Source: an uncultured Oscillospiraceae bacterium (GTDB lineage Bacteria > Bacillota > Clostridia > Oscillospirales > Oscillospiraceae). From it: a DNA stretch of 44,532 nucleotides. Where the stretch lies: assembly GCA_944386975.1 (NCBI GenBank), contig CALXDC010000018.1, positions 1 through 44,532 of the forward strand. The letters run 5' to 3'. A model generated the notes under the pieces. The model ran no database searches. It saw nothing but the letters and a program-made list of their open reading frames with translations, and was not told the origin of the DNA. Shown here one piece after another: positions 11,432-29,194 of this stretch. The stretch's first letter is position 1. Every line of letters begins with the position of its first letter. A program made the translations under genes and the position numbers.

Positions 11432-11437
11432 GAATCT

Positions 11438-11508: not shown

Positions 11509-11757
11509 TCACGGCCGGCCCTCCATCCTGGCGGTGTAGAGTCCCTCCCCGCTGCCCATAGCCGCCTCCAGGGCCGCTAAGTCCCAGTATTGGATCACCT
11601 GGACCTCCGCCGCCTGCCGCTGCCGGGCCTGGGCATCCAGCCGGGCGGCGTACTTCCCGGCGGTTACCCACAGGGCGGCCGCCGCCATAATCAGCACCGC
11701 CAGCCAGATCCGCCGCAGCCACCGCCGCCGGCGCAGCTGCTCCCTCGTTCTGCTCAT
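11509..11757 (-). CDS. Small single-pass membrane protein
   Basis: The 82-residue protein has a very basic N-terminus (MSRTREQLRRRRWLRR), one transmembrane helix (about 17-34, IWLAVLIMAAAALWVTAG) and a helical C-terminal part. The positive-inside rule places the N-terminus in the cytoplasm. The start overlaps the stop of the preceding gene. No family is recognised. The leader between it and the initiator gene contains the antisense RNA region. Confidence 0.68.
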   Translation of the reverse strand: MSRTREQLRRRRWLRRIWLAVLIMAAAALWVTAGKYAARLDAQARQRQAAEVQVIQYWDLAALEAAMGSGEGLYTARMEGRP

Positions 11758-12110: not shown

Positions 12111-12334
12111 GCGGCGCCTCCGTCATCCGTGGCCCGCTCGGCCACCCACTTGTCAAAGAGCTTGGTGTAGATTTCAAAGATCCGGTGCTTCCCCTCCGGG
12201 GTGCGGATGCAGATGGCAAAGGGGTAGAGCCCCGCCTCGATGCCGGCGGCCAGACGCTCGTTGGACGTGGGCACCCCCAACTGCCGCATCCGGACCGCCA
12301 GCTCACAGAGGGTCATGGTCTCAATTTTCAGCAT
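12107..12334 (-). CDS. Small winged-helix-like protein
   Basis: The 75-residue protein has the pattern N-E-R-L-x-A-G-I-E-x-G-x-Y-P-F-A-I-C-I-R followed by a tyrosine and tryptophan-containing tail. A related pattern (LRASIEQGKCPFGFCWR) occurs in the small gene next to the integrase of element B (17938-18195). Proteins with this layout are frequent in Clostridia phages and are probably MerR/excisionase-like DNA binders. It overlaps the upstream regulator gene by 14 bases. Confidence 0.68.
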   Translation of the reverse strand: MLKIETMTLCELAVRMRQLGVPTSNERLAAGIEAGLYPFAICIRTPEGKHRIFEIYTKLFDKWVAERATDDGGAA

Positions 12335-12782
12335 GATGATGTACCTCCTCAGACAGTTTGAGATTCAGCGCCGCCCGGACCAGATCGTCCAGGTCGGCCA
12401 GGATGGCGTCGAACAGGGGCCGCTCAGTCTCGTCGATGACGCCGTCCTCGGCGATCTGCAGCAGCTCCCGGTCTCGGTGCTGCTCGGCGAAGCGGACCAC
12501 CTTGTTGATCAGCTGGATGGACGCCCGGGGCAGGTCCAGCACCTGGACCTCCGGCACGACCTTGATCTCCCCGGAGGCGATCCGGTTGTGCTGATAGGCC
12601 AGATACAGGGCGTCGTAGACGATGCACATGCGATCCACCACGTCGGCCGGGGGCAGACGGTGGTAGCCCTCATAGGCCTTGATGCTCTCCACGGAGATGC
12701 CGAGTGCCTCAGCGGCCCCCTCCTGGGTCTTTCCGGCCTTGACCCGGGCTGTTTTGTAAATATTCGTGTCATACATGGACAT
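12321..12782 (-). CDS. XRE-family regulator with long C-terminal domain
   Basis: The 153-residue protein has an N-terminal helix-turn-helix (about 8-50, ARVKAGKTQEGAAEALGIS, then VESIKAYEGYHRLP) and a helical C-terminal domain (about 70-150). ATG at 12782 is chosen because AAAGGAG lies at proper spacing; a second ATG two codons later is possible. It is the second gene of the early operon after the Cro-like gene. It may be a CII- or antirepressor-like regulator (inference). Confidence 0.75.
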   Translation of the reverse strand: MSMYDTNIYKTARVKAGKTQEGAAEALGISVESIKAYEGYHRLPPADVVDRMCIVYDALYLAYQHNRIASGEIKVVPEVQVLDLPRASIQLINKVVRFAEQHRDRELLQIAEDGVIDETERPLFDAILADLDDLVRAALNLKLSEEVHHHAEN

Positions 12783-12814
12783 GGACAAATTCTCCTTTCG
12801 CGGGATAAGATAAA

Positions 12815-13009
12815 TCATGCAGAGCGGTCCCGGCCCAGCAGCTCGTCCACCGAGCAGCCGAAGAGCTCCGCCAGCTTGATCAGGTTGGCAGTGGAAGGGT
12901 AGGCCTTGCCCTCCTCCCAGGCGATCAGGGAGGGGCGGGCCACTCCCATCCGCCGGGCCAGCTCGCTGCGGTTCATACCTGCCGCTTCTCTCAACCGCTT
13001 GATATTCAA
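12815..13009 (-). CDS. Cro-like XRE regulator
   Basis: The 64-residue protein is almost entirely a helix-turn-helix domain: LREAAGMNRSELARRMGVA, then SLIAWEEGKAYPSTANLIKLA. Minimal single-domain XRE proteins at the head of an early operon, divergent from a repressor, are typical of Cro. Its promoter (13045-13073) carries a GTAG-N7-CTAC operator exactly in the spacer, so it is a controlled early promoter. Confidence 0.85.
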   Translation of the reverse strand: MNIKRLREAAGMNRSELARRMGVARPSLIAWEEGKAYPSTANLIKLAELFGCSVDELLGRDRSA

Positions 13010-13044
13010 GGACTTTCACCTCCTTTACATCCATGGATTTGCAT

Positions 13045-13073
13045 GGTATAGTAGTCTGTAACTACAGGTACAA
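13045..13073 (-). promoter_or_regulatory. Early-operon promoter with operator in the spacer
   Basis: Read on the minus strand, TTGTAC (13073-13068), a 17-base spacer and TATACC (13050-13045) precede the Cro-like gene by 35 bases. The operator at 13051-13065 fills the spacer. Confidence 0.8.
13051..13065. promoter_or_regulatory. Operator type 1, copy 1
   Basis: GTAGTCTGTAACTAC, a GTAG-N7-CTAC inverted repeat, lies between the -35 and -10 boxes of the early promoter. Confidence 0.75.
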
Positions 13074-13192
13074 GCTATTGCTATGAAGCCAAACAAACCG
13101 CTTGGCCGATCACAGGAGGGAATGTCAGATTGAATTGGGATAAATTACACAGATTCTCCCGTTTATTACCTCTCTGAGTTCCCTGCTGTCCG

Positions 13193-13669
13193 TCATTGTG
13201 GCCTTCTACGCTGTGCAGCAGGCCCGCAAAACTGCTTTGACCGGCACCTACTTTTCCGAAATGGCCCAGGCCTATTCCGGGTATTTGCGCTGTGTATCTG
13301 AGTTCGTTTTCCGCCGCGGCCTGGGGGAGCGTGACGCCCTGGCGGCATCGCTCTACCGCCTCCAGCTGGTCGCCTCCAGAGAGATCGCCAGCGACGCCCA
13401 GGAGCTTTATGTTTTCCTCTTGGCCTGGGCGTCGTCAAATCCGGCGGGGGCGTTGGAAGTGGATGAGCAATTGAATAGTTTAGGAGCGAAAATGAGGGAA
13501 CATCTGGATCAGGCTCGAAAGTACGGCCGTCTGTAAAGAGCTCCCGGAAAAGCTCCCGGATCTCCTGCACCCCGATCCCCAACACGAGGATCAGCTCCAG
13601 TGCTGTGCAGGCGGTGACAAACCCCAGGCACCACAGATCAATGGGACGAATTTCTTGGATCTCCCTCAC
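13193..13669 (-). CDS. Possible small membrane protein, convergent with 13198-13536
   Basis: From GTG at 13669 the first 44 residues look real: a charged start, then a hydrophobic helix (LWCLGFVTACTALELILVLGIGV) and an amphipathic segment. Beyond about 13536 the frame runs antisense to the plus-strand gene and becomes proline/arginine-rich, as shadow frames do. Either the gene is short and its end has been overrun, or the whole frame is accidental. Its promoter would lie in the operator region around 13696-13740. Confidence 0.3.
   Translation of the reverse strand: MREIQEIRPIDLWCLGFVTACTALELILVLGIGVQEIRELFRELFTDGRTFEPDPDVPSFSLLNYSIAHPLPTPPPDLTTPRPRGKHKAPGRRWRSLWRRPAGGGRAMPPGRHAPPGRGGKRTQIHSANTRNRPGPFRKSRCRSKQFCGPAAQRRRPQ
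13198..13536 (+). CDS. Small membrane-anchored protein, N-terminus apparently frameshifted
   Basis: The frame encodes AFYAVQQARKTALTGTYFSEM followed by a helical soluble domain. The same frame is open upstream to 13144 and would add ILPFITSLSSLLSVIV, making a full transmembrane anchor, but it has no usual start codon. A strong ribosome site (AGGAGGG) instead precedes TTG AAT TGG GAT AAA TTA in another frame, which ends at TGA 16 codons later. Joining the two frames gives a normal short anchor protein, so a one-base shift near 13145-13155 is suspected. GTG at 13198 is the first ordinary start left. Confidence 0.5.
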   Translation: MAFYAVQQARKTALTGTYFSEMAQAYSGYLRCVSEFVFRRGLGERDALAASLYRLQLVASREIASDAQELYVFLLAWASSNPAGALEVDEQLNSLGAKMREHLDQARKYGRL

Positions 13670-13695
13670 CCCCTTCCCGCCCGGCGGTGCAATTT

Positions 13696-13710
13696 GTAGT
13701 TACTGTCTAC
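13696..13710. promoter_or_regulatory. Operator type 1, copy 2
   Basis: GTAGTTACTGTCTAC. Its reverse complement matches the operator at 13051-13065 at 13 of 15 positions, and the GTAG/CTAC ends are conserved. Confidence 0.7.
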
Positions 13711-13722
13711 ACTCTTAGGATA

Positions 13723-13789
13723 AATCCGTAATTACGGATTGTCAATAGTGTTAAGCCGTAATTACATATTTTATCCGTAATCACGAATT
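13723..13789. promoter_or_regulatory. Operator type 2, three 18-bp copies
   Basis: A perfect 18-bp palindrome AATCCGTAATTACGGATT (13723-13740) is followed by two copies each matching at 15 of 18 positions (13753-13770 and 13772-13789). They surround a weak promoter (TTGTCA at 13739-13744 and TTACAT at 13762-13767) upstream of the repressor-like gene. Confidence 0.78.
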
Positions 13790-13814
13790 CTTTTTATAAT
13801 AGGAGTGATGCCCT

Positions 13815-14159
13815 TTGAATGTCGAAGTTTTTGTGCAAAACATCAAATATTACTGTGCAAAGAAAGGGGTAAAGCCGACAAACGCCTGCAAAGAGAGCGG
13901 CGTTGGTGCCAGTTTTATCTCCGACATCAACCGCGGTCAAACGCCCTCTGTAGCCAAGGTCCAGATGCTGGCCGACTACCTCGGCGTCACCACCAGCGAG
14001 CTGCTGGGCGAAAAAATGCCCGCCACCGGAGAGGGTGACGGGCCGTCAGAGAATGAGACTTTATTCAGAAAACTTTCTCCTGATCTCCAGGAGGAGGCGT
14101 TACGGTACATGCGGTACTTAGCAGCGCAATCAGATAAGCGCGAAGGGTCTGGGGATTGA
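13815..14159 (+). CDS. Repressor-like XRE regulator
   Basis: The 114-residue protein has an N-terminal HTH (about 8-62, with ACKESGVGASFISDINRG and LADYLGVTTSELL) and a short helical C-terminal domain that may dimerise. The start is TTG at 13815 with AGGAG nine bases upstream. It is divergent from the Cro-like operon and preceded by three type 2 operators, fitting an autoregulated lysogeny repressor. No peptidase or S24 domain is present, so induction would not be by RecA-driven self-cleavage. Confidence 0.82.
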   Translation: MNVEVFVQNIKYYCAKKGVKPTNACKESGVGASFISDINRGQTPSVAKVQMLADYLGVTTSELLGEKMPATGEGDGPSENETLFRKLSPDLQEEALRYMRYLAAQSDKREGSGD

Positions 14160-14208
14160 TTCGGCCCTCCAATTGGCGAAATTCTACCAGGCGTTCCAGC
14201 TCGGTCAT
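14065..14208 (-). CDS. Possible 47-residue protein antisense to the repressor 3' end
   Basis: ATG at 14208 follows a very strong ribosome site (TAAGGAGG, eight-base spacing) and encodes TELERLVEFRQLEGRINPQT and a helical tail. The last two thirds lie antisense to the repressor gene. The good ribosome site is the only strong support. Confidence 0.3.
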   Translation of the reverse strand: MTELERLVEFRQLEGRINPQTLRAYLIALLSTACTVTPPPGDQEKVF

Positions 14209-14258
14209 GGCAAAGGCCTCCTTAGATGGTCTTGCCCCTGGCCGCAATCCGACAAGAG

Positions 14259-14300
14259 TTGCACGAGATCGTGCAATTGGGAACCTGCGAAATATATAAT
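14259..14300 (+). promoter_or_regulatory. Promoter region of the Ltp-like gene with palindrome
   Basis: An 18-bp inverted repeat (TTGCACGA, two bases, TCGTGCAA; 14259-14276) lies just upstream of a TATAAT box (14295-14300). No good -35 box is seen, so the palindrome could be an operator or an activator site. Confidence 0.55.
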
Positions 14301-14376
14301 ACTACATGTGTGATTGCCCGTCGGTGTGCGGATAAATAAAAATGTGTCCAAATCGGGCACAAGGAGGAAGAGAAAG

Positions 14377-15102
14377 ATGAAATGCAGCAAATGTGGACAA
14401 GAATACCAGGGTAATTTTTGCCCGAAATGTGGTGCCCCTGCTCCCGGTAATGCCGCCCCAGCGCCCCACAAGAAAAAGAAGTTCCGCTGGTGGTATGTGT
14501 TGATTGCTCTGGTGCTCATCGGGGTCATCGGTTCCGCAATGGGAGGAAATGAAGAGGACCCCTCCACAGAGGACAATCAGATTCAGGGAGAAATTTCCCA
14601 ACCGGAGGAAACACCCGATCCGGTGGAAGATTCTGAGCCCACGGAGAGCGAGCCGGAAGTGTCAGAAGGCTGGACTGTGGAGCAGCAGAACGCCATGGCA
14701 ACTGCTAAAGATTATCTGGACTATTCTGGCTTTTCTTATAATAGGCTTATCAGTCAGCTGGAGTATGAAGGATATTCCACTGAACTGGCCACTTGGGCGG
14801 CGGATAATTGCAATGCCGATTGGGATGCCGAAGCATTGGAGAGTGCCAAGGATTACCTCGACTATTCTGCCTTTTCTTATAATGGACTTATCAATCAGCT
14901 GGAATATGAAGAGTTCACAACAGAGCAGGCCACCTACGCTGCCGATAACTGCGGAGCGGACTGGAATGCCGAGGCAGCCGAGTGCGCTAAGAGTTATCTG
15001 GACTTCTCCTCGTTCTCCAGAGATGGGCTGATCGACCAGTTAGAGTACGAAGGCTTTACTTATGAACAGGCCGTTTATGGCGTAGAGCAGAATGGGATGT
15101 AA
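14377..15102 (+). CDS. Ltp-like protein, putative superinfection exclusion
   Basis: The 241-residue protein has a zinc ribbon (CSKCG at 3-7, CPKCG at 15-19), a transmembrane helix (about 38-55), an acidic linker (56-98) and three Ltp-type repeats of about 48 residues (about 105-152, 153-200, 201-241; each with AKxYLDxSxFSxxGLIxQLEYEGF). In Streptococcus thermophilus phage TP-J34 the Ltp lipoprotein blocks DNA injection by related phages and lies between repressor and integrase, as here. Instead of a lipobox this version uses a transmembrane anchor. The start is ATG at 14377 with AGGAGG upstream. Confidence 0.82.
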   Translation: MKCSKCGQEYQGNFCPKCGAPAPGNAAPAPHKKKKFRWWYVLIALVLIGVIGSAMGGNEEDPSTEDNQIQGEISQPEETPDPVEDSEPTESEPEVSEGWTVEQQNAMATAKDYLDYSGFSYNRLISQLEYEGYSTELATWAADNCNADWDAEALESAKDYLDYSAFSYNGLINQLEYEEFTTEQATYAADNCGADWNAEAAECAKSYLDFSSFSRDGLIDQLEYEGFTYEQAVYGVEQNGM

Positions 15103-15148
15103 ACCCAAACATTCCGTAAGATCTAAGAAAGAGTATCTCTGGCCCTCC

Positions 15149-15176
15149 CCAAATCCGCAAGCGCTTGCGGATTTGG
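15149..15176. repeat. Perfect 28-bp palindrome
   Basis: The arms are CCAAATCCGCAAGC and its exact complement. A near-identical copy lies inside the DUF3102 gene (8150-8176). There is no T run, so it is not a terminator. Confidence 0.8.
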
Positions 15177-15178
15177 CC

Positions 15179-15195
15179 GTGTCCGAGTCGGACAC
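15179..15195. repeat. Second short palindrome, GTGTCCGA-G-TCGGACAC
   Basis: A perfect 8-bp inverted repeat around one base, two bases from the 28-bp palindrome. It could be a separate protein-binding site. Confidence 0.6.
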
Positions 15196-15211
15196 CTGAA
15201 TAGACAAAAGC

Positions 15212-15240
15212 CACCGCCCCAGCGCGGGGCGGTGCTTTTT
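15212..15240 (+). terminator. Intrinsic terminator after the Ltp-like gene
   Basis: CACCGCCCC and GGGGCGGTG form a nine-base-pair stem with a five-base loop, followed by CTTTTT. Confidence 0.85.
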
Positions 15241-15297
15241 ATGCTTGCAATTATCGAACAGCCGTTTTAATATAACCTAAAGAGGGGAGGGGACGTC

Positions 15298-16440
15298 ATG
15301 GAATGCCGGAAGTGCAGCCGGGATCTGCCGGCGGACGCCGTCTACTGCTGCTACTGCGGCCGCAGGCTGTCGGGAGGCCCCCGCAAGGCCGCCAAGCGGC
15401 CCAACGGAGCCGGCAGCGTGTATAAGCTCTCAGGCCGCAGAGCGCGTCCCTGGGCGGCCTCCAGGAAAGGGGTATGGCTGGGCACCTACGAGACCAAGGC
15501 GGCCGCTCTGGAGGCCCTGGAGCGCTCCGCACGCCGTCCCATCAGCGACGCCATCAACTTAACAATGGAGCAAATCTGGGAGCGCTGGAAGGCGGAGAAA
15601 TTCCCCGGTCTGGCGGAGAAGTCGCAGGAGGTATACCTCACCACCTGGCCCATCTTCTCCGGCCTGGCGGGGGAGAAGATGCGGACGCTGCGGACAGAGG
15701 ACGTCCAGCGCCTGGTGGACGAGCAGGTCCAGAAGGGCCGCAGCCGCTCCCAGTGCGAGAAGATCCGGAACCTCTACAGTCAGCTTTGTAAGTGGGCCAT
15801 GAGAGAGGATATCATCGACCGCAACTACGCCGAGTTCCTCCGGCTCCCCCGGGGGAAGAAGCCCCAGCGGGATACCTTTACTGCCAAGGAGCTGGCACTC
15901 CTCCAGCAGGACGCCGAGACCTGCGACACCTCGAAGCTGATCCTCATGCTGATTTTTACCGGATTCCGCCTCAATGAGCTGCTGCTTCTGCCCATGAGCG
16001 GCGTAAATCTGGAGGCTGACACCCTGACCGGCGGGGAAAAGACGGAGGCAGGCCGGGATCGCGTGGTCCCGATCCACCCGGCCATCCGGCCCTATGTAGC
16101 ATATTTCGCGGGGAAGGCAAAGGGAGATCTGCTGATCAGCGGCTACGAGGGGAACCGGGATCAGAAGAATTTCCGGAGCCGGGACTACTATCCCACGCTG
16201 CGGCGCCTGGGGATCAGCACGGCGGAGCGGCCCATGAAGCCCCACAGCTGCCGGTATACCTTTGCCACCATGGCCGTCAGCGCGGATCTGCAGCCGGAGG
16301 CACTGCAGAAGATCATGGGCCATGCTCAATACTCGACAACGGCAAATATCTACGATCAGGGAGATCTCCAGCGGATCCAACAAGAGATGGGAAAGCTGCC
16401 CGGGATTGATAGAAAATTGTTAGAAACTGATGCAGAATGA
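15298..16440 (+). CDS. Tyrosine integrase of element A, with N-terminal zinc ribbon
   Basis: The 380-residue recombinase has a short zinc ribbon (CRKC at 3-6, CCYCG at 17-21), a core-binding domain (about 85-180) and a catalytic domain with Arg224, His316, Arg319, His342 and nucleophile Tyr352. The HxxRH box reads HSCRY, with tyrosine in place of the usual histidine. It ends 78 bases before the 46-bp tRNA-Val core, so it is the enzyme that integrates element A there. ATG at 15298 has GGGGAGG upstream. Confidence 0.93.
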   Translation: MECRKCSRDLPADAVYCCYCGRRLSGGPRKAAKRPNGAGSVYKLSGRRARPWAASRKGVWLGTYETKAAALEALERSARRPISDAINLTMEQIWERWKAEKFPGLAEKSQEVYLTTWPIFSGLAGEKMRTLRTEDVQRLVDEQVQKGRSRSQCEKIRNLYSQLCKWAMREDIIDRNYAEFLRLPRGKKPQRDTFTAKELALLQQDAETCDTSKLILMLIFTGFRLNELLLLPMSGVNLEADTLTGGEKTEAGRDRVVPIHPAIRPYVAYFAGKAKGDLLISGYEGNRDQKNFRSRDYYPTLRRLGISTAERPMKPHSCRYTFATMAVSADLQPEALQKIMGHAQYSTTANIYDQGDLQRIQQEMGKLPGIDRKLLETDAE

Positions 16441-16518
16441 AGGTATCTGAGCAGGTGGTTTCTATCACAAAGGCCTTGCAAAATCAGCGTCAGCCACTGC
16501 CAGATATGGCGAGAAATA

Positions 16519-16564
16519 TTTGACGTGCAGGGGGTCAGCGGTTCAAGTCCGTTAGCGTCCACCA
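16519..16564 (+). repeat. Attachment site: right end of element A and left end of element B
   Basis: This 46-bp segment is identical to 29149-29194. It reads as the 3' part of a tRNA: anticodon loop TTGACGT (anticodon GAC, valine), T-arm AGCGG-TTCAAGT-CCGTT, acceptor strand AGCGTCC, discriminator A and CCA. The 5' half of a tRNA is missing here, so it is an att core and not a tRNA gene. Confidence 0.93.
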
Positions 16565-16695: not shown

Positions 16696-16721
16696 GAAAC
16701 CGCCTGTCACAGGGCGGTTTC
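16696..16721 (-). terminator. Integrase terminator overlapping its stop codon
   Basis: GAAACCGCC and GGCGGTTTC pair around an eight-base loop that contains the integrase stop codon (16707-16709). The minus-strand side continues into TTTTTT. Confidence 0.8.
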
Positions 16722-17870
16722 TTCCTTGTTTCCTGCGTTGCGTCCCACAGCCAGCAGAGCGCTCCGCAGGGTTTCAGTGTCCGTGTGATCGTAGATTTTG
16801 GTCAGCATCTTCAGATCACTATGGCCCAGGAGCCGCGCCGCCATATAGGGATCCATCCCCTGAGCGATCCAGAGAGTAGCCCGGGTATGGCGAAGTTCGT
16901 GGGGAGACAACAGGGGAATCTCCGGGTGAACGGCACGGAGATCCCGCATGAAGCGGCGATACACCCGGTTTTCCCAGTTGTTGGGCTGATAGGGCTTCCC
17001 CTCAGGGCTGTGAATGATCTCTTCGGTGAGAATGGTCTTCTTACCTATTGTGACGGTTCTGGGTGTCTGCTGCAGCCGCTGCCACAGGGCGTCGTCTGTG
17101 ATGGGAATGGTACGGCGCCGGAACTTATTTTTCAACCCCGTTTTTTCCATCACATGCTTGTCCTCATCTGCAGAGTGGTATACCACCAGCCCCTGCCGGA
17201 TATAAATGCACCGCTTTTCCAGATCCAGATCTGTCCAGCGCAGTCCCAGCAGTTCACTTCTGGATACGCCGGTCTCCATCATCAGCATGATGGACAGCCC
17301 ATTCTCCCACTCCCTGGCAAACTGGTAAGCCGCATCATACTGCTCCTGGGTAAAGGCATGTTTTTCTACCCGGGTTTCATACCGGGGCAATTTGATGCTT
17401 TTTGTCACAGGCGATTTACTGCACAATTGATTGTCTACGGCGGTGGAGAAGATCAGGTTTAGAACTGTCATGTCCTTCTTTAACGTCTCCGGGGCATATT
17501 TTTTGGCAGCCTCATTGATGTATTTCTGAATGTGGATAGGACGGATTTCGCTGAGAATCTGGTCTCCAAAATAGGGATTCAGATGATACTTGACCGGAGC
17601 CAAATAGGTCCCGTTGTAGGTGTTTGCCTTGACATAGGGCTTTTTATACAGTTCCAGACAGGAGAGCGCCCACGTGGAAAATTTCACCGGCTTGATGCAG
17701 CCACTGCCGTTGACACAGATCTCCATCTCGTACTGTAGGCGGAAATTTTCTGCTTTTTTCCTGGCGTCGGCCAGACTTTTGGTGCTATAAAAAGAACGGC
17801 GGATCGGACGGCCATCCAGACCCTTTCCCAGGTTTAACTTATACTCATACCGCTTTTTGGGCTTGGTCAA
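16707..17870 (-). CDS. Tyrosine integrase of element B
   Basis: The 387-residue protein has an AP2-like arm-binding N-terminus (about 5-50), a core-binding domain (about 75-165) and a catalytic domain with Arg204, His324, Arg327 (HELRH), His350 and nucleophile Tyr360 (KIYDH). It is of the ICE/Tn916 type and not closely similar to the element A integrase, although both use the same tRNA site. The paired TACGACA repeats just downstream of its stop, and near the other end, are probable targets of its N-terminal domain. Confidence 0.94.
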   Translation of the reverse strand: MTKPKKRYEYKLNLGKGLDGRPIRRSFYSTKSLADARKKAENFRLQYEMEICVNGSGCIKPVKFSTWALSCLELYKKPYVKANTYNGTYLAPVKYHLNPYFGDQILSEIRPIHIQKYINEAAKKYAPETLKKDMTVLNLIFSTAVDNQLCSKSPVTKSIKLPRYETRVEKHAFTQEQYDAAYQFAREWENGLSIMLMMETGVSRSELLGLRWTDLDLEKRCIYIRQGLVVYHSADEDKHVMEKTGLKNKFRRRTIPITDDALWQRLQQTPRTVTIGKKTILTEEIIHSPEGKPYQPNNWENRVYRRFMRDLRAVHPEIPLLSPHELRHTRATLWIAQGMDPYMAARLLGHSDLKMLTKIYDHTDTETLRSALLAVGRNAGNKEETAL

Positions 17871-17937: not shown

Positions 17938-18195
17938 TTATGCAGGCAACACCCGGCTGCAGGTCAGCCAGTAGACAAAAGTGACCGTAGGCAGTTTATA
18001 GGCCGTGCGATCCCCAAGACGCCAGCAGAATCCAAAGGGACATTTGCCCTGTTCAATACTGGCCCGAAGGGCATCCGGCTTGACGTGGAGAAATTCAGCA
18101 GCAGCCAGAACCGGGATATAGATCGGATACTTTTCCACCAGAAGGCTCACGGAGTCCATTTGCTCCTTGAGCAGAGACAATGCTTTCTCAGACAT
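17938..18195 (-). CDS. Small excisionase/winged-helix-like protein
   Basis: The 85-residue protein contains IPVLAAAEFLHVKPDALRAS, a helix-turn-helix-like segment, followed by IEQGKCPFGFCWRLGDRTAYK, a pattern shared with the element A gene at 12107-12334. It sits between helicase and integrase, where directionality factors often lie. ATG at 18195 follows AAGGGGG and overlaps the end of the helicase gene by eight bases. A second, more typical excisionase is at 28805-28993. Confidence 0.7.
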   Translation of the reverse strand: MSEKALSLLKEQMDSVSLLVEKYPIYIPVLAAAEFLHVKPDALRASIEQGKCPFGFCWRLGDRTAYKLPTVTFVYWLTCSRVLPA

Positions 18196-19864
18196 TGCAG
18201 TTTTCCCCCTTATGAAAGATTGTAAAGGTGCCATTGCTGGCAAGAACCTGGAAAGGAAGTCCCAGGGTATTGAGACGGGAATTGATTGCCTGGTGTCCTA
18301 ACGTGCGTGTGCTGTCGTGGGGAAAGGACTGTACTGCGTTGGCAAGAGGTGTAAACTCCTTGGAGAACGCTGCGAAAGAGGTGCGGTCCATGGAAGATCC
18401 GGCGGAGACTGCCAGAAATGCCATCAAATCTGCTTTGGCCTGTGCTTTGCGATCATAGTCCAGCCAGCGCTGGGGAGCGTAGCCATCCGGCTGCTCCAGC
18501 CACTGGTGGGCCAGACGAGGCAGCGCCGAGTCATCACCCAGCCTCTTTTCACTGTCCAAAAGGCCCTGCAGTGTCGCCTCCTGCCAGTGCAGATAGAGGG
18601 AGGCAGTCCGCTTGGGAGTAAGACGCCCGTTGCCGGTATAGTTGAACAGATGCATGTACCGGCGCTCATTGCTCTCGTCGTTCCAGCCACGGTAGATCAG
18701 AGCGTCACAGCGATCCGTTTTTGCTGCCTGTTCCCCTTCCTGCAGAAGGTGAAGGCCGCAGCGGACGTCGCTCAGCCGTCTGCAGATTGTCCCCTGGTCC
18801 GGTACCCAGAGATAGACATGAATGTTTTCTCCGGGCATCAAGCGCTTGCGTCCCAGCATCTGGAGAAACTCGGTGCGATCCGTGGTCTCCACAACAATGT
18901 GGCGCAGTGCTGGATCCTTGATGTTGACGCCGCAGTCCAGAACAGAGGTGCAGACCAGTGCCTGCTGGGTAAACCGCTCTTTTTTGCAAAGTTCATTCCA
19001 AGGGAGCGATCCTTTTGAAAAACGGTCCAAATAGACTGCCTGGATCCTCTGATGTTTCAGCGCTGCCATGTAGGATTTTTTCATCCCGCCGCTTTCACTC
19101 TCTCTGCTGGAAGTGAAGATCAGAAACTTATCTTTGGGACAGGATTTTACCAGGTCAGCAATCTCTTCCGCTTTGCGGTAGTAGTGCAGATCAACAGTGG
19201 AGAAGTGGTGGGGGAAACGGTAGAGCACCAGTTTTCCATATCCCGCACAGAAATACCGGCAGTTCTTGCAATCCCTCAGGTTCTCCTCCTCCGCCTGACA
19301 GAGAAGGGGCAGAATTGTGCCCGGCGTGGCGGAGAGGTACAGGCGGTGGGCGTGGCGAAAGAGGACGGGCAGTTTCCAGAATAACGAATCCAGGTGGGGG
19401 TTGAAGGCGGCATCAGAGTAAAAGTAGTGGACCTCGTCACCTACAACCCAGGCAAAGTCCTTCAGATTCATCTCCTTATAGCGGGCAGCAAAGCGCTGGT
19501 AGGTCATAACCGTGACACCCACATCCTCCAGGGCCTCATCGGCATAGGCCAGTGCCTGGAGGTCCTCCACTTTGGCCCATTTTGACTGCAGTGCTTTTGC
19601 CAGACTGGCCTTCTGCTGGACAGCGATGGCCGTCCGGTGGACCAACAAAAGCACCTTCCCCCGGCGACGCTGCTGATACCTGACGATCCTTCTGACAAAC
19701 TCCGTCTTTCCCTGGCCGGTAGGGGCCTCAATGAGTATTGGCCGGTTGGTACACCAACTGCCGATCATTCCGCCCAATGCCTCTCCAACCCAGGTGTCCG
19801 GCATCTGCACAATGTGGCATTCCTCCGGGATCTCCTCCCGGGTATAGGGAAGGATGACCCGCAC
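18188..19864 (-). CDS. DEAD/DEAH-type SF2 helicase
   Basis: The 558-residue protein has SF2 motifs: Walker A APTGQGKTEF (about 47-56), motif Ia around LLLVHRTAIAVQQK, motif II GDEVH (about 142-146), motif III LSATPG (about 177-182) and a second RecA domain with TSVLDCGVNIKD and QMLGRKRLMPG (about 310-345). It probably acts on element DNA or RNA, possibly in mobilisation or replication. GTG at 19864 has no ribosome site. AAGGAGG lies nine bases before an in-frame ATT at 19900, which would add 12 residues and may be the true start. Confidence 0.85.
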   Translation of the reverse strand: MRVILPYTREEIPEECHIVQMPDTWVGEALGGMIGSWCTNRPILIEAPTGQGKTEFVRRIVRYQQRRRGKVLLLVHRTAIAVQQKASLAKALQSKWAKVEDLQALAYADEALEDVGVTVMTYQRFAARYKEMNLKDFAWVVGDEVHYFYSDAAFNPHLDSLFWKLPVLFRHAHRLYLSATPGTILPLLCQAEEENLRDCKNCRYFCAGYGKLVLYRFPHHFSTVDLHYYRKAEEIADLVKSCPKDKFLIFTSSRESESGGMKKSYMAALKHQRIQAVYLDRFSKGSLPWNELCKKERFTQQALVCTSVLDCGVNIKDPALRHIVVETTDRTEFLQMLGRKRLMPGENIHVYLWVPDQGTICRRLSDVRCGLHLLQEGEQAAKTDRCDALIYRGWNDESNERRYMHLFNYTGNGRLTPKRTASLYLHWQEATLQGLLDSEKRLGDDSALPRLAHQWLEQPDGYAPQRWLDYDRKAQAKADLMAFLAVSAGSSMDRTSFAAFSKEFTPLANAVQSFPHDSTRTLGHQAINSRLNTLGLPFQVLASNGTFTIFHKGENCNV

Positions 19865-21592: not shown

Positions 21593-22063
21593 ATGGCAAC
21601 ATATCGTGTAATTGGCGTTGGCGAACACGGAAAATATTTTGACGGACAGGCTTATCGCAATACCACAAACTACATATTGAACCCTCAAAAAGCACAGTAT
21701 GTTGGGGGCTGCGGCATCACTTCCCTGGCCACAGCGGCACAGGAGATGGAGCAGACCGCTGAGACATATCAGAAGAACAGCGGAAAACGGGTACGGCATT
21801 CCGTACTCAGTTTCGATGCAGGCGAACATATCACACCGGAGCAGGCTGATCAGTTTGCCCGTGAGATTTTGCAGCACTATGGCTCAGAGTACCAGATCCT
21901 CTATGCAGTCCACACCAATACGGACGACGTCCATATCCATATGGTGATGAATCAGGTTTCTTTTGTAGATGGACACCGTTATCAGGGAAAGAAACAGGAT
22001 TACTACGCATTCCTTGGCCATATGAGGCATGTTACCCATCTGCCGGTAATCCCCGTAAAGTGA
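21593..22063 (+). CDS. Short MOB-type relaxase domain protein
   Basis: The 156-residue protein matches the catalytic core of MobA/VirD2-like relaxases. It has an N-terminal YRNTTNYILNPQK segment holding candidate nucleophile tyrosines (about 21-33), RHSVLSFD (about 67-74) and the metal-binding VHTNTDDVHIHMVMN (about 103-117). Usual relaxases have several hundred more residues; this one stops soon after the HxH motif. There is a clean stop and no continuation in another frame nearby. It may be a naturally minimal relaxase or a remnant. AGGAGG lies seven bases before ATG. Confidence 0.82.
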   Translation: MATYRVIGVGEHGKYFDGQAYRNTTNYILNPQKAQYVGGCGITSLATAAQEMEQTAETYQKNSGKRVRHSVLSFDAGEHITPEQADQFAREILQHYGSEYQILYAVHTNTDDVHIHMVMNQVSFVDGHRYQGKKQDYYAFLGHMRHVTHLPVIPVK

Positions 22064-22265: not shown

Positions 22266-22370
22266 TTATCGGTTGATTTTGATGTCCTGCAGGAAGGTAA
22301 ATGCCATACCGCCCAGCATGGTCCCTACCATAAAGTCATAGAGGGGACCGGTCAGAAGAATAGGAAACAT
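22266..22370 (-). CDS. 34-residue hydrophobic peptide
   Basis: ATG at 22370 follows GGAGG (GGAGGTGTCGAA ATG). The peptide starts MFPILLTGPLYDFMVGT and ends FLQDIKINR, with a glycine/methionine-rich hydrophobic centre. It is the last of three tiny genes, each with its own strong ribosome site, downstream of the amidoligase/amidotransferase genes. It may be a membrane peptide, a holin- or toxin-like peptide, or a substrate of the upstream enzymes (inference). Confidence 0.62.
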   Translation of the reverse strand: MFPILLTGPLYDFMVGTMLGGMAFTFLQDIKINR

Positions 22371-22391
22371 TTCGACACCTCCAATTCACGT

Positions 22392-22472
22392 TCAACCGGC
22401 GGACACAGCCGCCTGCGTTACCACCAAAACTGTCAGAGAGACAGCAAATCCCAGAACAACATAGGGACTCAT
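22392..22472 (-). CDS. 26-residue membrane peptide
   Basis: ATG at 22472 follows GAGGAGG. The peptide MSPYVVLGFAVSLTVLVVTQ continues AAVSAG and is one transmembrane helix without charged residues. Small peptides of this form resemble type I toxin or stress peptides, but here it is embedded in an operon between a 36-residue and a 34-residue frame. Confidence 0.6.
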   Translation of the reverse strand: MSPYVVLGFAVSLTVLVVTQAAVSAG

Positions 22473-22485
22473 CACAACACCTCCT

Positions 22486-22596
22486 CTACCACGCCCGCAC
22501 CAGATCCCGTAAAAGGATCAGGTGCTCCAATATGTCTTTGCCAGGGGCCTCTCCGCCCCAGGGCGGAAACTGCGCAGGTTTTACAAATCGGCCCAT
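22486..22596 (-). CDS. 36-residue small protein
   Basis: ATG at 22596 follows GGAGG. The sequence begins MGRFVKPAQFPPWGGEAPGK and ends in an amphipathic helix (DILEHLILLRDLVRAW). It overlaps the end of the DUF3846 gene by 16 bases, so it is translationally coupled to it. The proline/glycine-rich first half with a helical second half is unusual. No family is recognised. Confidence 0.6.
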   Translation of the reverse strand: MGRFVKPAQFPPWGGEAPGKDILEHLILLRDLVRAW

Positions 22597-22979
22597 ACCA
22601 GCACCTCCATGTTATGGTCTGTATCTGTAACATTTTCTTTCAGCAGGACAAACTCTTCCGGTTGACAAAAACGTTCTTGCAATATGCGGATCTCTTCCGG
22701 GGACAGGGAGACAAAATTGTCGCTGTCCGGAGGAGCGCCGCAGAGGAAAAAGGTGCCCGCCACAATGTCGTAGGGCTCCCATGTCTCCCAATCGTACAGT
22801 GTCCGATTCAGGGGGAGTCCCAGTATCTTTCCCTCGTCGTTGCAGACCAGGGCCACTGGTTCCGGAAAAGGATATACGGCCTGAATTGTGCCGCCCACCA
22901 GGGATTGCATTGCCCCAAGGTCCTGAGGGATTTCCGTTTCATAGGGTGTCTGCCCAGGTTCCACCACCAGAATTTTCAT
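22581..22979 (-). CDS. DUF3846 protein
   Basis: The 132-residue protein has the DUF3846 pattern: MKILVVEPGQTPYETEI, MQSLVGGTIQAVYPFPEPVAL and VCNDEGKILGLPLNR (about 1-60), then DIVAGTFFLCG (about 70-80). Such proteins are widespread on conjugative and mobilizable elements of Clostridia. Their role is unknown. It lies 21 bases from the amidotransferase gene in the same transcript. Confidence 0.85.
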   Translation of the reverse strand: MKILVVEPGQTPYETEIPQDLGAMQSLVGGTIQAVYPFPEPVALVCNDEGKILGLPLNRTLYDWETWEPYDIVAGTFFLCGAPPDSDNFVSLSPEEIRILQERFCQPEEFVLLKENVTDTDHNMEVLVWADL

Positions 22980-23000
22980 GGATGAGTCTCCTTTCTGTCC

Positions 23001-23933
23001 TTAAATTTCTCCGCAGTAGAGCAGTTCCTCGACCTCCTCCGGAGAAAACCCGCAGGCTGCCAGTTGGTCAATGTCCTCCGGGGTATACCCAAAGGCACAG
23101 GCTACCTTCTTGATCTCCTCCAGGTAGGTGCTTGTTGTATTCCGTACCGGATACATGGGACGGCTCTGAAAGGCGGAGGGCGCGCACTCCCTCCAGAAAT
23201 GATGGAAAAGATGGGCCGCATGAAATGTATCCTGCTCTGTAGCGCCTGACGGCCTGATGCGCAGGATCTCTCCGCATTCCAGAGGGATTTCTTGGCCCTC
23301 TCTTCCGGACAGGCCTATATCTGCCAGGGCCTGCTGGAGAATAGGCTTGGTAGAGGCATAGAGATACAGTCCCTGGGCGGGAAAGTGGTACAGACACAGA
23401 GGATTGTCGCCTTTTACCAGGTAGAGGTTGTCCCTGCTGTCCAGAATCGAAAAGCAGAAAGACCCCTCCAGGGCCTCGGCGGTATATCGCAGGCTTTCAA
23501 AGTTCACAGCGCTGCGGCTCTGGATCAACTGCACAGCGATATAACTGTCCGTCTCTACGTTCGTATTGGGTAAGTGCAAGGTTTGGCGAAGTGCTTTGTC
23601 GTTGTGCAAAATACCGTTGTGGGCCAGTGCGAAAGCCCCCTCCCGGGTCTGCCCAGGGAAGGGGTGATTATTGCGATTTTTCTTTTCACAGCCCTGGGTT
23701 GTCATCCTGGTGTGGCCCATAACTACCCGGGTTTCTGCCGGCACATGGAAACGGAGCAGATGGGCGGGCCAGGGACGCTTGTAGATGCGCATTTTCCCGC
23801 CGGCGTTGTAGGCAATACCGGCAGCATCGGTCCCTCTGGCCTCACAGACAGCGGCCAGGACGTTCAGCATATGGCTCTTTTTGCTGGCAGGGAGACTGCG
23901 GCGGTAGTCTATGAGTCCGAAAAGGCTGCACAT
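23001..23933 (-). CDS. Class II glutamine amidotransferase-like protein
   Basis: The 310-residue protein starts Met-Cys2 (MCSLFGLIDY). Cys2 becomes the N-terminal nucleophile after methionine removal, as in PurF/GlmS/AsnB glutaminase domains. Supporting motifs are ARGTDAAGIAY (about 33-43), GHTRMTTQG (about 73-81), LAHNGILHN (about 103-111) and NVETDSY (about 124-130). No asparagine synthetase or PRTase domain follows; a helical C-terminal extension ends with an acidic repeat-like tail (GYTPEDIDQLAACGFSPEEV). It overlaps the amidoligase stop (TGATG), so the two are co-translated and probably work together. Confidence 0.88.
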   Translation of the reverse strand: MCSLFGLIDYRRSLPASKKSHMLNVLAAVCEARGTDAAGIAYNAGGKMRIYKRPWPAHLLRFHVPAETRVVMGHTRMTTQGCEKKNRNNHPFPGQTREGAFALAHNGILHNDKALRQTLHLPNTNVETDSYIAVQLIQSRSAVNFESLRYTAEALEGSFCFSILDSRDNLYLVKGDNPLCLYHFPAQGLYLYASTKPILQQALADIGLSGREGQEIPLECGEILRIRPSGATEQDTFHAAHLFHHFWRECAPSAFQSRPMYPVRNTTSTYLEEIKKVACAFGYTPEDIDQLAACGFSPEEVEELLYCGEI

Positions 23934-25045
23934 CACTCGTCCACCTCCGCCTCCACTGGCTCATTGACATAGAGCCGCCGCTCTTTTAGATACTGAATCA
24001 GTTCCGGACAGGTGTCGGATGGAATGGCCGCTACAAAACTGGTCCAGGACAACCCCTTGATCTCTTCGTCAGAGCAGTACAGCACCAGATCGCACAGCCG
24101 GTCCAACAACTCCAGAGTTGCGATCAGCGTGTTGTATTTCAAAGTGCCCCGAAAGATCCGGACCTCAACGGTATCACAGTTTTGCAGGTTGATGCAACTG
24201 TACCGACCGCCAAGGCCCCCCTTTTTGGCGTGATCCAGAATCTCAGCAGGTTGCTCCTTGTAGCCGTAGCGGGCGGCCCAGCGCTCCAACTGTCGTGGGG
24301 TGCGGCGGCTGAACTTCAGCAGTTCCTCCCAGTGCTTTTCAAAGAAATACAGGAGACGGGCAATGGCAGCATCCTGCTGCTGGACAGTCTCCCCAAAGGA
24401 CGGTCGGCTGATATGGACGTGAAGGCCGCAGGTTCTGGCCTTATGGGACTGATATCCTAATTGCACTGCCTGTCCCAGCACTGCAGCCCAGGGCATTTGT
24501 CCTTTGTGATAGTCCAGAGACATGGGATGGGACACCAGTTCCATTCCGTCCGTCAGACTGCCGTCATGCTTGCAGTAGATGTGCTCAGCGGAGCGGTTGG
24601 CAAGATTCAACAGTTCTCTGGCGTTGCTGTTGTCCTCACCAGCCTCATCAATCTCCAGTTCCACGCCAAAATACCGGGGCCCATCTCCATAGAAAATTGG
24701 GTCGGGCTTGAAGTAATAGTCGTGGATTGTACGAGTTTTTGCGGCCCGCTCATAACATCCGCAGCAGAGCGGCTCGTCGTTTCTGTCCCAGTAGCGGGCA
24801 TCGGCCTGCCGGATCAGAGCACCGCAGCGGTCGCACTCGGTGTAGTATCGGTCGCGACAAGATGGGCACAAAATTACCTGGGACGTGCCTGCGTTGTCGT
24901 CCCAGGTAATTCGTTCTCCGCAGTGGGAGCAGAACGTAGTGGTGTCATTCAGGCAGTCCCGACACAGCATGGTGTCGCCGAAGGGAATGAGTTGTTCCCG
25001 GGACAATAAAATCCCGCAAGACTCGCAGTAAAATTTTTCTCGCAT
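23933..25045 (-). CDS. Amidoligase-family enzyme with N-terminal zinc ribbons
   Basis: The 370-residue protein opens with several CxxC knuckles (CESC at 7-10, CRDC, CSHCG, CPSC, CDRCG; about 7-105). A COOH-NH2 ligase domain related to glutamate-cysteine ligase/glutamine synthetase follows: YFGVELEID (about 125-133), HDGSL plus MELVSHP (about 159-175) and CGLHVHIS (about 206-213). These enzymes use ATP to join a carboxyl to an amine. A partner glutaminase (next gene) could supply ammonia. ATG at 25045 follows GGAGG. Ribons at the N-terminus may select a protein or nucleic-acid target. Confidence 0.85.
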   Translation of the reverse strand: MREKFYCESCGILLSREQLIPFGDTMLCRDCLNDTTTFCSHCGERITWDDNAGTSQVILCPSCRDRYYTECDRCGALIRQADARYWDRNDEPLCCGCYERAAKTRTIHDYYFKPDPIFYGDGPRYFGVELEIDEAGEDNSNARELLNLANRSAEHIYCKHDGSLTDGMELVSHPMSLDYHKGQMPWAAVLGQAVQLGYQSHKARTCGLHVHISRPSFGETVQQQDAAIARLLYFFEKHWEELLKFSRRTPRQLERWAARYGYKEQPAEILDHAKKGGLGGRYSCINLQNCDTVEVRIFRGTLKYNTLIATLELLDRLCDLVLYCSDEEIKGLSWTSFVAAIPSDTCPELIQYLKERRLYVNEPVEAEVDE

Positions 25046-25060
25046 AGGGGTAACCTCCAC

Positions 25061-25091
25061 AAATAAAAATCCCCGGGGCTTTTCCCCGGGG
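25061..25091 (-). terminator. Terminator/attenuator just before the amidoligase ribosome site
   Basis: Two CCCCGGGG arms (25071-25078 and 25084-25091) flank a five-base loop and are followed on the minus strand by ATTTTTATTT. The amidoligase Shine-Dalgarno begins only about five bases later, leaving no room for a promoter. Amidoligase mRNA must therefore read through or start upstream. Confidence 0.72.
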
Positions 25092-25132
25092 TCCTTCATG
25101 GAGATAGTATCTTATTGTAAATGGAAAGTTTT

Positions 25133-25474
25133 TCAGAACAGGTCTACCATGTCCTCAAAGATCTGCAGCACATTTTCTACCTTATCATTAGGAACACGCG
25201 CCAGCAGTTCTTCGATCCTACGGCCATAGGCGGAATTATTACCGGGCAATGGGCCAGTGCGCAACAGTTCTGTAGGGGAAACCCCAAGTGCCTCGGCAAT
25301 CTTGTAGATCGTGTCGACCGTAGGACATTTTTCGCCTCGCTCAACCTGGCCAAAATAGGAGGTATTGAGCCCGCTGCGCAGGGCCAGTTCCTCCTGGCTG
25401 AAGGCGCACCTGTGGCGCAGTTCCCGAATCCGGTTCCCGATTGTTGTCATGATTTCCTGTCGTTGTACAGACAT
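25133..25474 (-). CDS. XRE-family regulator
   Basis: The 113-residue protein has an N-terminal HTH (about 10-66: IGNRIRELRHRCAFSQEELA, then TSYFGQVERGEKCPTVDTI) and a helical C-terminal tail (about 75-113, RRIEELLARVPNDKVENVLQI). It lies upstream of the amidoligase operon in the same orientation and is separated from it only by the hairpin at 25061-25091. It probably controls that operon. Imperfect inverted sequences around its start (CTATAGGCGGTATAAAG and TATAGCAC) may be its operator. ATG at 25474 is used; an in-frame ATG eight codons later is possible. Confidence 0.82.
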   Translation of the reverse strand: MSVQRQEIMTTIGNRIRELRHRCAFSQEELALRSGLNTSYFGQVERGEKCPTVDTIYKIAEALGVSPTELLRTGPLPGNNSAYGRRIEELLARVPNDKVENVLQIFEDMVDLF

Positions 25475-28462: not shown

Positions 28463-28804
28463 ATGATTAACGAGCAAGAGTATATAGAAACTGTCAAACG
28501 CATGCGGACGCGCACCGCGCGTCTGGAGCGGGAAGGGGATTATTGGACGGAAGAGGAGAAAAAAGAACTGGCCACACAATTTACGGCCGGAAGCAGTATT
28601 ACAAAAATTGCCGTTCTGCTGCAGCGGACAGAGCCCGCTATCTTTCAGCAGATCGAAAAAATGGACCTGTATGGACGGAAGAAACGGCCACAGCGTCGTA
28701 AATCCAGGCCCAAACCGGCTGCTTGCTTATGTCCCGCCTGTATGCTGTCTCCGAGCGCCTGTGTCCGCTGTGAGTCCGATCAGACCAGGAAGGGGGAGAT
28801 TTGA
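28463..28804 (+). CDS. Small HTH-like element protein
   Basis: The 113-residue protein has a charged helical N-terminus and a segment WTEEEKKELATQFTAG plus SITKIAVLLQRTEPAI (about 26-60). This resembles a Myb/sigma-type helix-turn-helix. A cysteine-rich tail follows (CLCPACMLSPSACVRC, about 87-102) that could bind zinc. The excisionase starts immediately after its stop, so they form a two-gene unit at the right end of element B, probably controlling excision. Confidence 0.72.
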   Translation: MINEQEYIETVKRMRTRTARLEREGDYWTEEEKKELATQFTAGSSITKIAVLLQRTEPAIFQQIEKMDLYGRKKRPQRRKSRPKPAACLCPACMLSPSACVRCESDQTRKGEI

Positions 28805-28993
28805 ATGCTGGAAGATTATCTGGATATCCTGACTGTGGAAGAGGCGTGTGAAGCCCTCAGAGTGGGAGAAAATGCCTTGTACAGCCTATTAAATCGTGGT
28901 ATCATAAAAGGGTATCGAAACGGCCGCGTCTGGCGGATCCCCAAGGTAGCACTGCAGGAGTATATTCTGGAGAGCATGGGGAAGAAACAGTAA
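28805..28993 (+). CDS. Excisionase (Xis), MerR-like HTH
   Basis: The 62-residue protein is a typical excisionase-family HTH: DILTVEEACEALRVGENALY, then SLLNRGIIKGYRNGRVWRIP, ending in a short helix. Such proteins bend DNA at att arms and shift the integrase toward excision. It lies 155 bases from the right att copy and 45 bases from the TACGACA repeats. In the circular form it would face the integrase across attP. Confidence 0.88.
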   Translation: MLEDYLDILTVEEACEALRVGENALYSLLNRGIIKGYRNGRVWRIPKVALQEYILESMGKKQ

Positions 28994-29148: not shown

Positions 29149-29194
29149 TTTGACGTGCAGGGGGTCAGCGGTTCAAGTCCGTTAGCGTCCACCA
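29149..29194 (+). repeat. Attachment site: right end of element B
   Basis: It is identical to 16519-16564 over 46 bp, from the anticodon loop of tRNA-Val(GAC) through CCA. Again only the 3' half of a tRNA is present, preceded by element sequence. Confidence 0.93.

What the first reader, a model, noticed from the sequence alone, without database searches (positions are those of the whole stretch)
22266..25474. Candidate undescribed system: amidoligase, class II amidotransferase, DUF3846 and small peptides
An XRE regulator, a zinc-ribbon amidoligase, a stand-alone Cys2 glutaminase (co-translated by TGATG overlap), a DUF3846 protein and three tiny frames form one operon on a mobilizable element. 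Amidoligases of this superfamily are predicted to build amide bonds on proteins, peptides or small molecules, and a glutaminase could supply ammonia. Together they could amidate or tag a peptide or host target for defence, competition or element control. The zinc ribbons on the ligase may choose the target. The set is not a standard biosynthetic cluster that I know.
Basis: partly seen in the sequence, partly recalled or inferred. Interest (0 to 1): 0.78.

Follow-up and report, generated by a model that had tools for sequence, protein, structure and literature searches.

The report
Glutamine-fed ligase pair on mobile elements
A small mobile DNA element in a bacterium carries an enzyme pair that probably takes ammonia from glutamine and attaches it to an unknown target; the two genes travel together across related bacteria, often beside tiny membrane peptides, and what they modify can now be tested.

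Summary
The operon is real and its core holds. The window carries a 12.6-kb integrative mobilizable element (46-bp repeats of tRNA-Val(gac), integrase, 156-aa relaxase). Its cargo is a zinc-finger, glutamine-synthetase-fold amidoligase overlapping a Cys2 class II glutaminase. The pair is nearly obligate: the glutaminase directly follows the ligase in 58 of 61 loci (of the other three, two are cut by contig ends and one ligase is truncated), and in 200 family genomes both occur in the same 19. Catalytic motifs are invariant. Two of the three tiny frames are real: paired membrane peptides (pepA/pepB). Tiny hydrophobic frames flank 16 of 44 cassettes against 2 of 227 control genes. DUF3846 is at 24 of 61 loci; the XRE gene is not conserved. 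A hairpin behind a -10-like box precedes the operon, so the ligase starts at 25045, not 25099. Neighbourhoods are rich in recombinases; 7 of 19 hold a protein matching a defence model, a suggestive but not decisive context. Amidoligase-glutaminase pairs are known from phages, so this is a new variant. Most likely it amidates carboxylates on a protein, peptide or wall precursor for the element's benefit; the target is unknown.

The parts
16519..16564 (+). att repeat, left end of the element (3' half of tRNA-Val(gac))
   Evidence: 46-bp exact direct repeat; its 38-base core at 3 places in the genome; intact tRNA-Val(gac) at the third
16707..17870 (-). tyrosine integrase of the element
   Evidence: Phage_integrase 1.7e-18
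18188..19864 (-). DEAD/ResIII helicase, element gene
   Evidence: Pfam 1.1e-14
21593..22063 (+). mini-relaxase (156 aa), convergent with the operon
   Evidence: PF03432 3.4e-29; relatives within -2200..+4500 of the ligase in 11 of 61 loci
22266..22370 (-). pepB, 34-aa membrane peptide
   Evidence: same family at 9 of 61 loci with E<=1e-3, 8 of them in the training alignment; in whole genomes only at ligase loci at the thresholds used
22392..22472 (-). pepA, 26-aa membrane peptide with LGF motif
   Evidence: same family at 10 of 61 loci with E<=1e-3, 8 of them in the training alignment; strong Shine-Dalgarno
22581..22979 (-). DUF3846 protein
   Evidence: PF12957 1.3e-36; 24 of 61 loci; distance correlation with the ligase r=0.87 over 22 loci
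23001..23933 (-). class II glutamine amidotransferase, Cys2
   Evidence: GATase_6 1.4e-14; invariant Cys, RGxDxxG, HTRxxTQG, NNHPF, AHNG, TDS in 12 rows
23933..25045 (-). amidoligase: three tandem zinc fingers (12 Cys) plus GS/GCS-fold catalytic domain
   Evidence: PF12224 4.3e-7, 30.5 bits over cut-off 22; alignment; model pLDDT 85.9 and Foldseek
25071..25091 (-). 5' leader hairpin followed by a T-rich run
   Evidence: folding z -4.1; 23 of 32 chosen leaders z < -2
25104..25109 (-). -10-like box TACTAT (TATATTAT at relatives); in several sets of close copies homology begins here
29149..29194 (+). att repeat, right end of the element

Best explanation
A two-protein, glutamine-dependent amidoligase carried as cargo by an integrative mobilizable element. 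The glutaminase (N-terminal Cys after Met removal) releases ammonia from glutamine; the glutamine-synthetase-fold ligase activates a carboxylate with ATP and metal and joins the ammonia to it, making a primary amide. The zinc fingers hold the target, most likely a protein, a membrane peptide or a peptidoglycan precursor peptide; the tiny membrane peptides place the enzyme at the membrane or are themselves the target. The benefit goes to the element, for example by changing the envelope against competing phages or elements. Shown by sequence: the pair, its near-obligate linkage, intact motifs, the element, the peptides. Inferred: ammonia transfer, target class and benefit. I put about 0.85 on the two proteins acting as one enzyme and much less on any target.
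For: Glutaminase directly 3' of the ligase in 58 of 61 loci, median gap 4 nt. In 200 family genomes this glutaminase subfamily (E<=1e-40) is in exactly the 19 genomes with the long ligase, 27 of 28 places next to it and the 28th at a contig end. Ligase-glutaminase distance correlation r=0.87 over 51 loci, 0 of 2000 permutations (duplicates not dropped). Metal and ATP motifs (GVELEID, KHDGS, HxH, ExRxFRGTL) and glutaminase motifs conserved. Catalytic domain matches YbdK-type ligases and glutamine synthetase (6 hits with E<=0.001), more weakly GmaS, Dop and PafA. Tiny hydrophobic frames at 16 of 44 cassettes against 2 of 227 controls. Pairs also in phages, where cell-surface change against superinfection has been proposed.
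Against: No substrate, no product, no experiment. Foldseek TM-scores of the six best hits are low (0.31-0.37 on the model), so only the catalytic fold is supported. Peptides are absent or unrecognised at most loci, and one peptide family (pepC) also precedes other mobile-element operons. A C. difficile phage has a ligase relative followed by a gene that does not look like a glutaminase, and the glutaminase search gave no hit in that record.
Confidence: 0.45

Rival explanations
1. Anti-phage defence or counter-defence module: the pair amidates a phage or host protein when infection occurs. (Overlaps with the best explanation, so the odds are not exclusive.)
For: Patchy mobile cargo (20 of 391 class genomes). 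Within 7.5 kb, 7 of 19 family loci hold a PADLOC match at E<=1e-10: type I restriction-modification at L054 and L059 and a weak type I REase match at L061, DarG at L059, a Toprim-ATPase-like protein at L063, PD-T4-6-type kinases at L051 and L055, an SspD-like protein at L052.
Against: Kinase and ATPase matches are generic; L051 and L055 are related copies in one genome; the 20 control regions also give 8 models with 1-3 proteins each. The pair and DUF3846 match no PADLOC model.
Confidence: 0.25
2. The tiny peptides are ribosomally made precursors (toxin, bacteriocin or exclusion peptide) and the pair is their tailoring enzyme.
For: pepB only at ligase loci at the thresholds used; several peptide families recur at the cassette.
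Against: No residue that could be amidated is invariant in pepA or pepB; no transporter or peptidase was noticed beside the pair, but none was searched for; most loci lack a recognised peptide.
Confidence: 0.2
3. Auxiliary nitrogen metabolism: the pair makes a small amide from a metabolite.
For: Proposed for a Planctomycetes phage with amidoligase and glutamine amidotransferase (passages).
Against: Gives no role to the zinc fingers and membrane peptides.
Confidence: 0.1
4. Unrelated mobile-element genes collected by chance.
For: DUF3846, DUF960, DUF6809, the XRE gene and the recombinase vary in presence and order.
Against: Ligase and glutaminase are not found apart in 200 genomes except at contig ends.
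Confidence: 0.05

Closest known systems
Phage amidoligase / class II glutamine amidotransferase cassettes (LUZ24-like, PSA-HP1 and relatives, OM43 phages, Marvin group)
   Same: PF12224-type ligase and class II GATase in one region; in UFV-P2 one HNH gene apart, in PSA-HP1 neighbouring gene numbers, in MosMoris adjacent
   Different: PSA-HP1 also has an ATP-grasp enzyme, a second amidoligase and a gamma-glutamyl cyclotransferase, UFV-P2 an ATP-grasp enzyme; the operon here has none of these; its ligase has three zinc fingers, and tiny peptides, DUF3846 and a resolvase-type recombinase accompany the family
YbdK / glutamate-cysteine-ligase-like and glutamine synthetase fold
   Same: Catalytic fold and metal/ATP motifs
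   Different: Zinc fingers, partner glutaminase, 12-16% identity in the six best hits
MurT-GatD and LtsA peptidoglycan amidation (recalled)
   Same: Glutamine-fed amidation of a carboxylate
   Different: Recalled: MurT is a Mur-ligase fold with a class I glutaminase; LtsA is asparagine-synthetase-like. Not compared here
PafA/Dop pupylation (recalled; weak fold hits)
   Same: GS-fold enzyme acting on protein carboxylates
   Different: No Pup-like protein was noticed; a glutaminase instead

Membership tests
Amidoligase_2 (PF12224) | Profile score above gathering cut-off | tested here: met
   30.5 bits, cut-off 22
Amidoligase_2 (PF12224) | Conserved metal/ATP-binding acidic and basic motifs | tested here: met
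   E129, E131, H209, H211, E294, R296, R299 listed as invariant over 14 rows; their roles are recalled
Class II glutamine amidotransferase | N-terminal catalytic Cys and glutamine-binding motifs | tested here: met
   Met-Cys and motifs invariant over 12 rows; PF13522 54.7 bits, cut-off 27
DUF3846 (PF12957) | Profile score above cut-off | tested here: met
   125.3 bits, cut-off 27.5
Phage peptidoglycan-modification cassette | Amidoligase and class II GATase together | tested here: met
Phage peptidoglycan-modification cassette | ATP-grasp, second ligase and gamma-glutamyl cyclotransferase in the operon | tested here: not met
   None among the operon proteins scanned
Integrative mobilizable element | att repeats, integrase and relaxase | tested here: met
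Integrative mobilizable element | No mating-pore genes of its own | tested here: inconclusive
   None among the window proteins scanned; not every frame was scanned
Anti-phage defence system in PADLOC | Match to a PADLOC model | tested here: not met
   Ligase, glutaminase and DUF3846: 0 models with E<=0.001
RiPP (modified ribosomal peptide) | Peptide carries the modification | not testable with these tools
   Needs mass spectrometry

The most novel reading that the evidence does not exclude
A new kind of mobile-element peptide-modification system: a zinc-finger amidoligase, fed by its own glutaminase, amidates tiny membrane peptides encoded in the same cassette (pepA/pepB, pepC1/C2, pepD and others), giving membrane-active or exclusion peptides whose state depends on glutamine and ATP.
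Probability: 0.2. Interest if true: 0.85.

Novelty: new variant of a known kind. Interest (0 to 1): 0.57.

Why it matters
Phage amidoligase-glutaminase pairs have had only proposed roles in the passages I saw. Here a compact version, whose two genes were not found apart in 200 genomes except at contig ends and which often has 25-41-aa membrane peptides beside it, reduces the question to a two-enzyme, two-peptide experiment. It would also tell whether mobile elements of Clostridia change their host's envelope or peptides by amidation.

Tried and rejected
Defence-island test: PADLOC (E<=1e-10) on 105 of 115 neighbour proteins of 19 loci matched 214 models, of which 25 were shown; 100 of 191 control proteins from 20 regions matched 8 models. 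A second run on 72 neighbours matched 65 models, 25 shown, and single proteins were named. It may be more, since lists were capped and long proteins (over 900 aa, for example at L068) were left out. DUF3846: model pLDDT 76.8, no PDB fold hit with E<=0.001. RNAalifold found no common leader structure (0 pairs); single-sequence folding was used on leaders that I had picked by eye and pattern, which biases that count. Leader-peptide reading of the hairpin rejected: start and frame are not kept (L009, L053). The cassette as an insertion sequence moved by its small recombinase: close copies share a left end at the -10-like box and often a right end near the recombinase or behind the relaxase-MobC genes, but I did not search for an empty site; left open. 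MT839723.1 as a circular phage rejected: linear, unverified. Rfam: no match at gathering score. Plasmid DNA search: no match. Peptide count: overlap with other frames was tested more strictly for controls than for cassettes (17 of 46 against 2 of 233); with one filter for both and L121, L129 dropped it is 16 of 44 against 2 of 227, without the frame filter 16 of 44 against 4 of 227, loosest settings 20 of 44 against 13 or 21 of 227, strictest 12 of 44 against 1 or 2 of 227. L012, L020, L069 and L130 have ligase or glutaminase in pieces and were kept as pieces.
Full report
WHAT IS THERE. The window lies in an unnamed 2.66-Mb genome of 96 contigs, contig C18. On the minus strand between 25474 and 22266 lie, in order, an XRE regulator (HTH_3, 1.8e-13), an Amidoligase_2 protein (4.3e-7, 30.5 bits over a cut-off of 22), a GATase_6 protein (1.4e-14), a DUF3846 protein (1.3e-36) and small frames without Pfam match. 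The ligase stop and glutaminase start overlap as TGATG. A 46-bp exact direct repeat at 16519-16564 and 29149-29194 is the 3' half of a tRNA-Val(gac) gene: its 38-base core occurs three times in the genome and the third place holds the intact tRNA. The cassette thus sits in a 12.6-kb element with a tyrosine integrase and a helicase and a 156-aa relaxase. A second integrase (15298-16440) abuts the left repeat, so another element probably lies in tandem.

CORRECTION OF THE LIGASE START. Upstream of the ligase, and of DUF3846 where that comes first, many relatives carry a -10-like TATATTAT box, a hairpin of changing sequence, a T-rich run, a Shine-Dalgarno and the ATG. In the window this is TACTAT at 25109-25104 and a hairpin at 25091-25071; the start is ATG 25045. 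Of 32 leaders that I picked by eye or pattern, 23 fold with z below -2. In several sets of close copies (L059/L060/L062, L009/L011/L012, L053/L054, L006 or L007 with L008) homology begins at the box; in others (L051/L055/L056) there is no such box.

THE PAIR IS NEARLY OBLIGATE. Relatives came from genome contigs (18 loci), a viral contig (1), family genomes (23 of 200 with a match; 19 with a long match, 4 with only the zinc-finger part) and class genomes (20 of 391 at E<=1e-15, in 12 families, one of them, G375, only a short match). I compared 61 loci, which include two duplicate pairs. A class II glutaminase follows the ligase directly in 58 of 61, median gap 4 nt; of the other three, L004 and L137 end at a contig edge and L138 holds a truncated ligase with no glutaminase. 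Searched on its own, this glutaminase subfamily (E<=1e-40) occurs in 19 of 200 family genomes, the same 19 that hold the long ligase; 27 of its 28 places are next to a ligase and the 28th begins at base 5 of its contig. Pairwise distances correlate: ligase-glutaminase r=0.87 (51 loci), ligase-DUF3846 r=0.87 (22), glutaminase-DUF3846 r=0.80 (23), ligase-recombinase r=0.56 (30), glutaminase-recombinase r=0.49 (31), recombinase-DUF3846 r=0.22 (14; 208 of 2000 permutations reach it).

WHAT THE PROTEINS ARE. The ligase has three tandem CxxC..CxxC units (12 Cys, invariant or nearly so) and conserved GVELEID, KHDGS, HxH and ExRxFRGTL motifs. Its model (mean pLDDT 85.9, pTM 0.69) has six Foldseek hits with E<=0.001: 1tt4, entered as a predicted glutathione synthase (2.3e-5), YbdK (3.4e-4) and glutamine synthetases (3.2e-4), with TM-scores of 0.31-0.37; GmaS, Dop and PafA follow at E 0.002-0.02; weak hits to LIM domains (LMO2, 0.0098) point to the zinc fingers, as does a weak profile match to LIM proteins (best 0.017). 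The glutaminase matches PurF and GlmS; its Cys and motifs are invariant in 12 rows. DUF3846 gives no fold match.

TINY PEPTIDES. Downstream of DUF3846 or of the recombinase, ten loci encode pepA (25-33 aa, MxWxxLGFV) and nine of them also pepB (30-41 aa, PLAxFxEGAxLAxSVYL), on the same strand and in this order. Eight rows of each trained the profiles, so new finds by profile are pepA at L008 and L012 and pepB at L015; L107 has a pepA by eye. In whole genomes pepB occurs at E<=0.001 in 1 of 200 family genomes, this one, at its two ligase loci, and at E<=0.05 in 6 of 11 further genomes, each hit at the ligase locus by its coordinates. In ten genomes searched at E<=1 weaker matches (0.024 and up) lie elsewhere; I take them for chance. 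Six other loci have two peptides (pepC1, pepC2) just upstream of the ligase, and a few have single peptides. With one rule (ATG, strong Shine-Dalgarno, 18-45 aa, hydrophobic) and one filter, 16 of 44 cassettes with enough flank have such a frame, against 2 of 227 control genes of the same loci; other settings are in Tried and rejected. Related cassettes are not independent, but the peptides fall in several families unlike each other by eye. Against a strict link: pepC2 at E<=0.01 gives 10 hits in 9 of 200 genomes, of which five are at ligase loci, one (G029) lies before a stand-alone zinc-finger protein, two precede operons that by eye are DUF932/YqaJ-like, and two weak ones were not looked at; pepC1 gives 6 hits in 5 of 200 genomes, five at ligase loci and one in G029.

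OTHER PARTNERS. A resolvase/invertase-type recombinase is near 33 of 61 loci, 31 of them 3' of the glutaminase, with a conserved inverted-repeat region in front of it in about 15 of 20 by eye; in ten genomes 10 of 12 matches to it lie at ligase loci, and this genome has none at that threshold. DUF3846 is at 24 of 61, before or after the pair; a DUF960-like gene lies upstream in eight distinct loci by eye, one confirmed. The relaxase is within reach in 11 of 61. The XRE gene has only scattered, weak relatives at other loci.

CONTEXT. Among 105 neighbour proteins (of 115 called, 19 loci), resolvase domains occur in 7 and phage integrase in 5; among 100 control proteins (of 191 called, 20 regions) integrase occurs in 1 and resolvase in at most 1. 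PADLOC matches at E<=1e-10 were named at 7 of 19 loci: type I restriction-modification at L054 and L059, a weak type I REase match at L061, DarG at L059, Toprim-ATPase at L063, kinases of the PD-T4-6 model at L051 and L055, SspD-like at L052; WYL regulators are not counted. Controls gave 8 models. So this is mobile-element cargo with a suggestive but not decisive defence context; the pair itself matches no PADLOC model.

WHAT IS KNOWN. Amidoligase plus glutamine amidotransferase is printed for UFV-P2, a LUZ24-like phage (table passage), OM43 phages (passages), PSA-HP1 and relatives (passage) and a Planctomycetes phage (passages); amidoligases with a gamma-glutamyl cyclotransferase in a C. clostridioforme prophage and in Tn6164 (passages). 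A role in changing the cell surface against superinfection is proposed, partly citing Iyer et al. 2009, which is not held. Mycobacteriophage MosMoris has the two genes side by side, both below the Pfam cut-offs, a podovirus has the pair by eye, and genome G039 has a distant ligase next to a Met-Cys protein by eye, neither with a Pfam match. Searches with amidoligase plus conjugative and glutamine amidotransferase, plus class II glutamine, alone (40 of 81 listed) and with relaxase, recombinase or island terms (15 of 1,084 listed), and for DUF3846, listed no paper that I could recognise as describing this form.

MECHANISM. Best reading: glutamine to ammonia on the glutaminase, ATP-driven amidation of a carboxylate on the ligase, target held by the zinc fingers, possibly at the membrane with the tiny peptides. 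The first two steps follow from family knowledge and intact motifs; the target and the benefit are inference. The zinc-finger domain standing alone behind pepC1/C2 in G029 hints that zinc fingers and peptides act together.

Noticed in passing
window 1-16564: A second integrase (15298-16440) abuts the left att repeat: probably two elements in tandem at one tRNA-Val(gac).
   Followed up: partly
L006, L007, L015 (oriented right ends): The shared block ends near another TATATTAT-like box with a new gene behind it: cassettes of these elements may be exchanged at promoter boxes.
   Followed up: partly
window 28463-28993: A weakly GcrA-like small protein and an HTH_17 protein that recur near the cassette in other genomes (6 and 13 of 40 loci).
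   Followed up: no
L162:1415-1765 and L161: Stand-alone relatives of the ligase's zinc-finger part: in L162 followed by a gene that by eye is a single-stranded-DNA-binding protein, in G029 (L161) behind pepC1/pepC2 and before a DUF932-like gene.
   Followed up: partly
L164, L165: pepC2-like tiny peptides in front of DUF932/YqaJ-like operons (by eye): tiny membrane peptides may be a general first-gene feature of mobile-element operons.
   Followed up: no
L167:5827-8086: A distant amidoligase-like gene beside a Met-Cys (glutaminase-like) gene in genome G039, without zinc fingers.
   Followed up: no
upstream of the recombinase in about 15 of 20 aligned loci: Inverted repeats like GTCCCATTAGGGT...ACCCTAATGGGAC, resembling a resolvase site.
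   Followed up: partly
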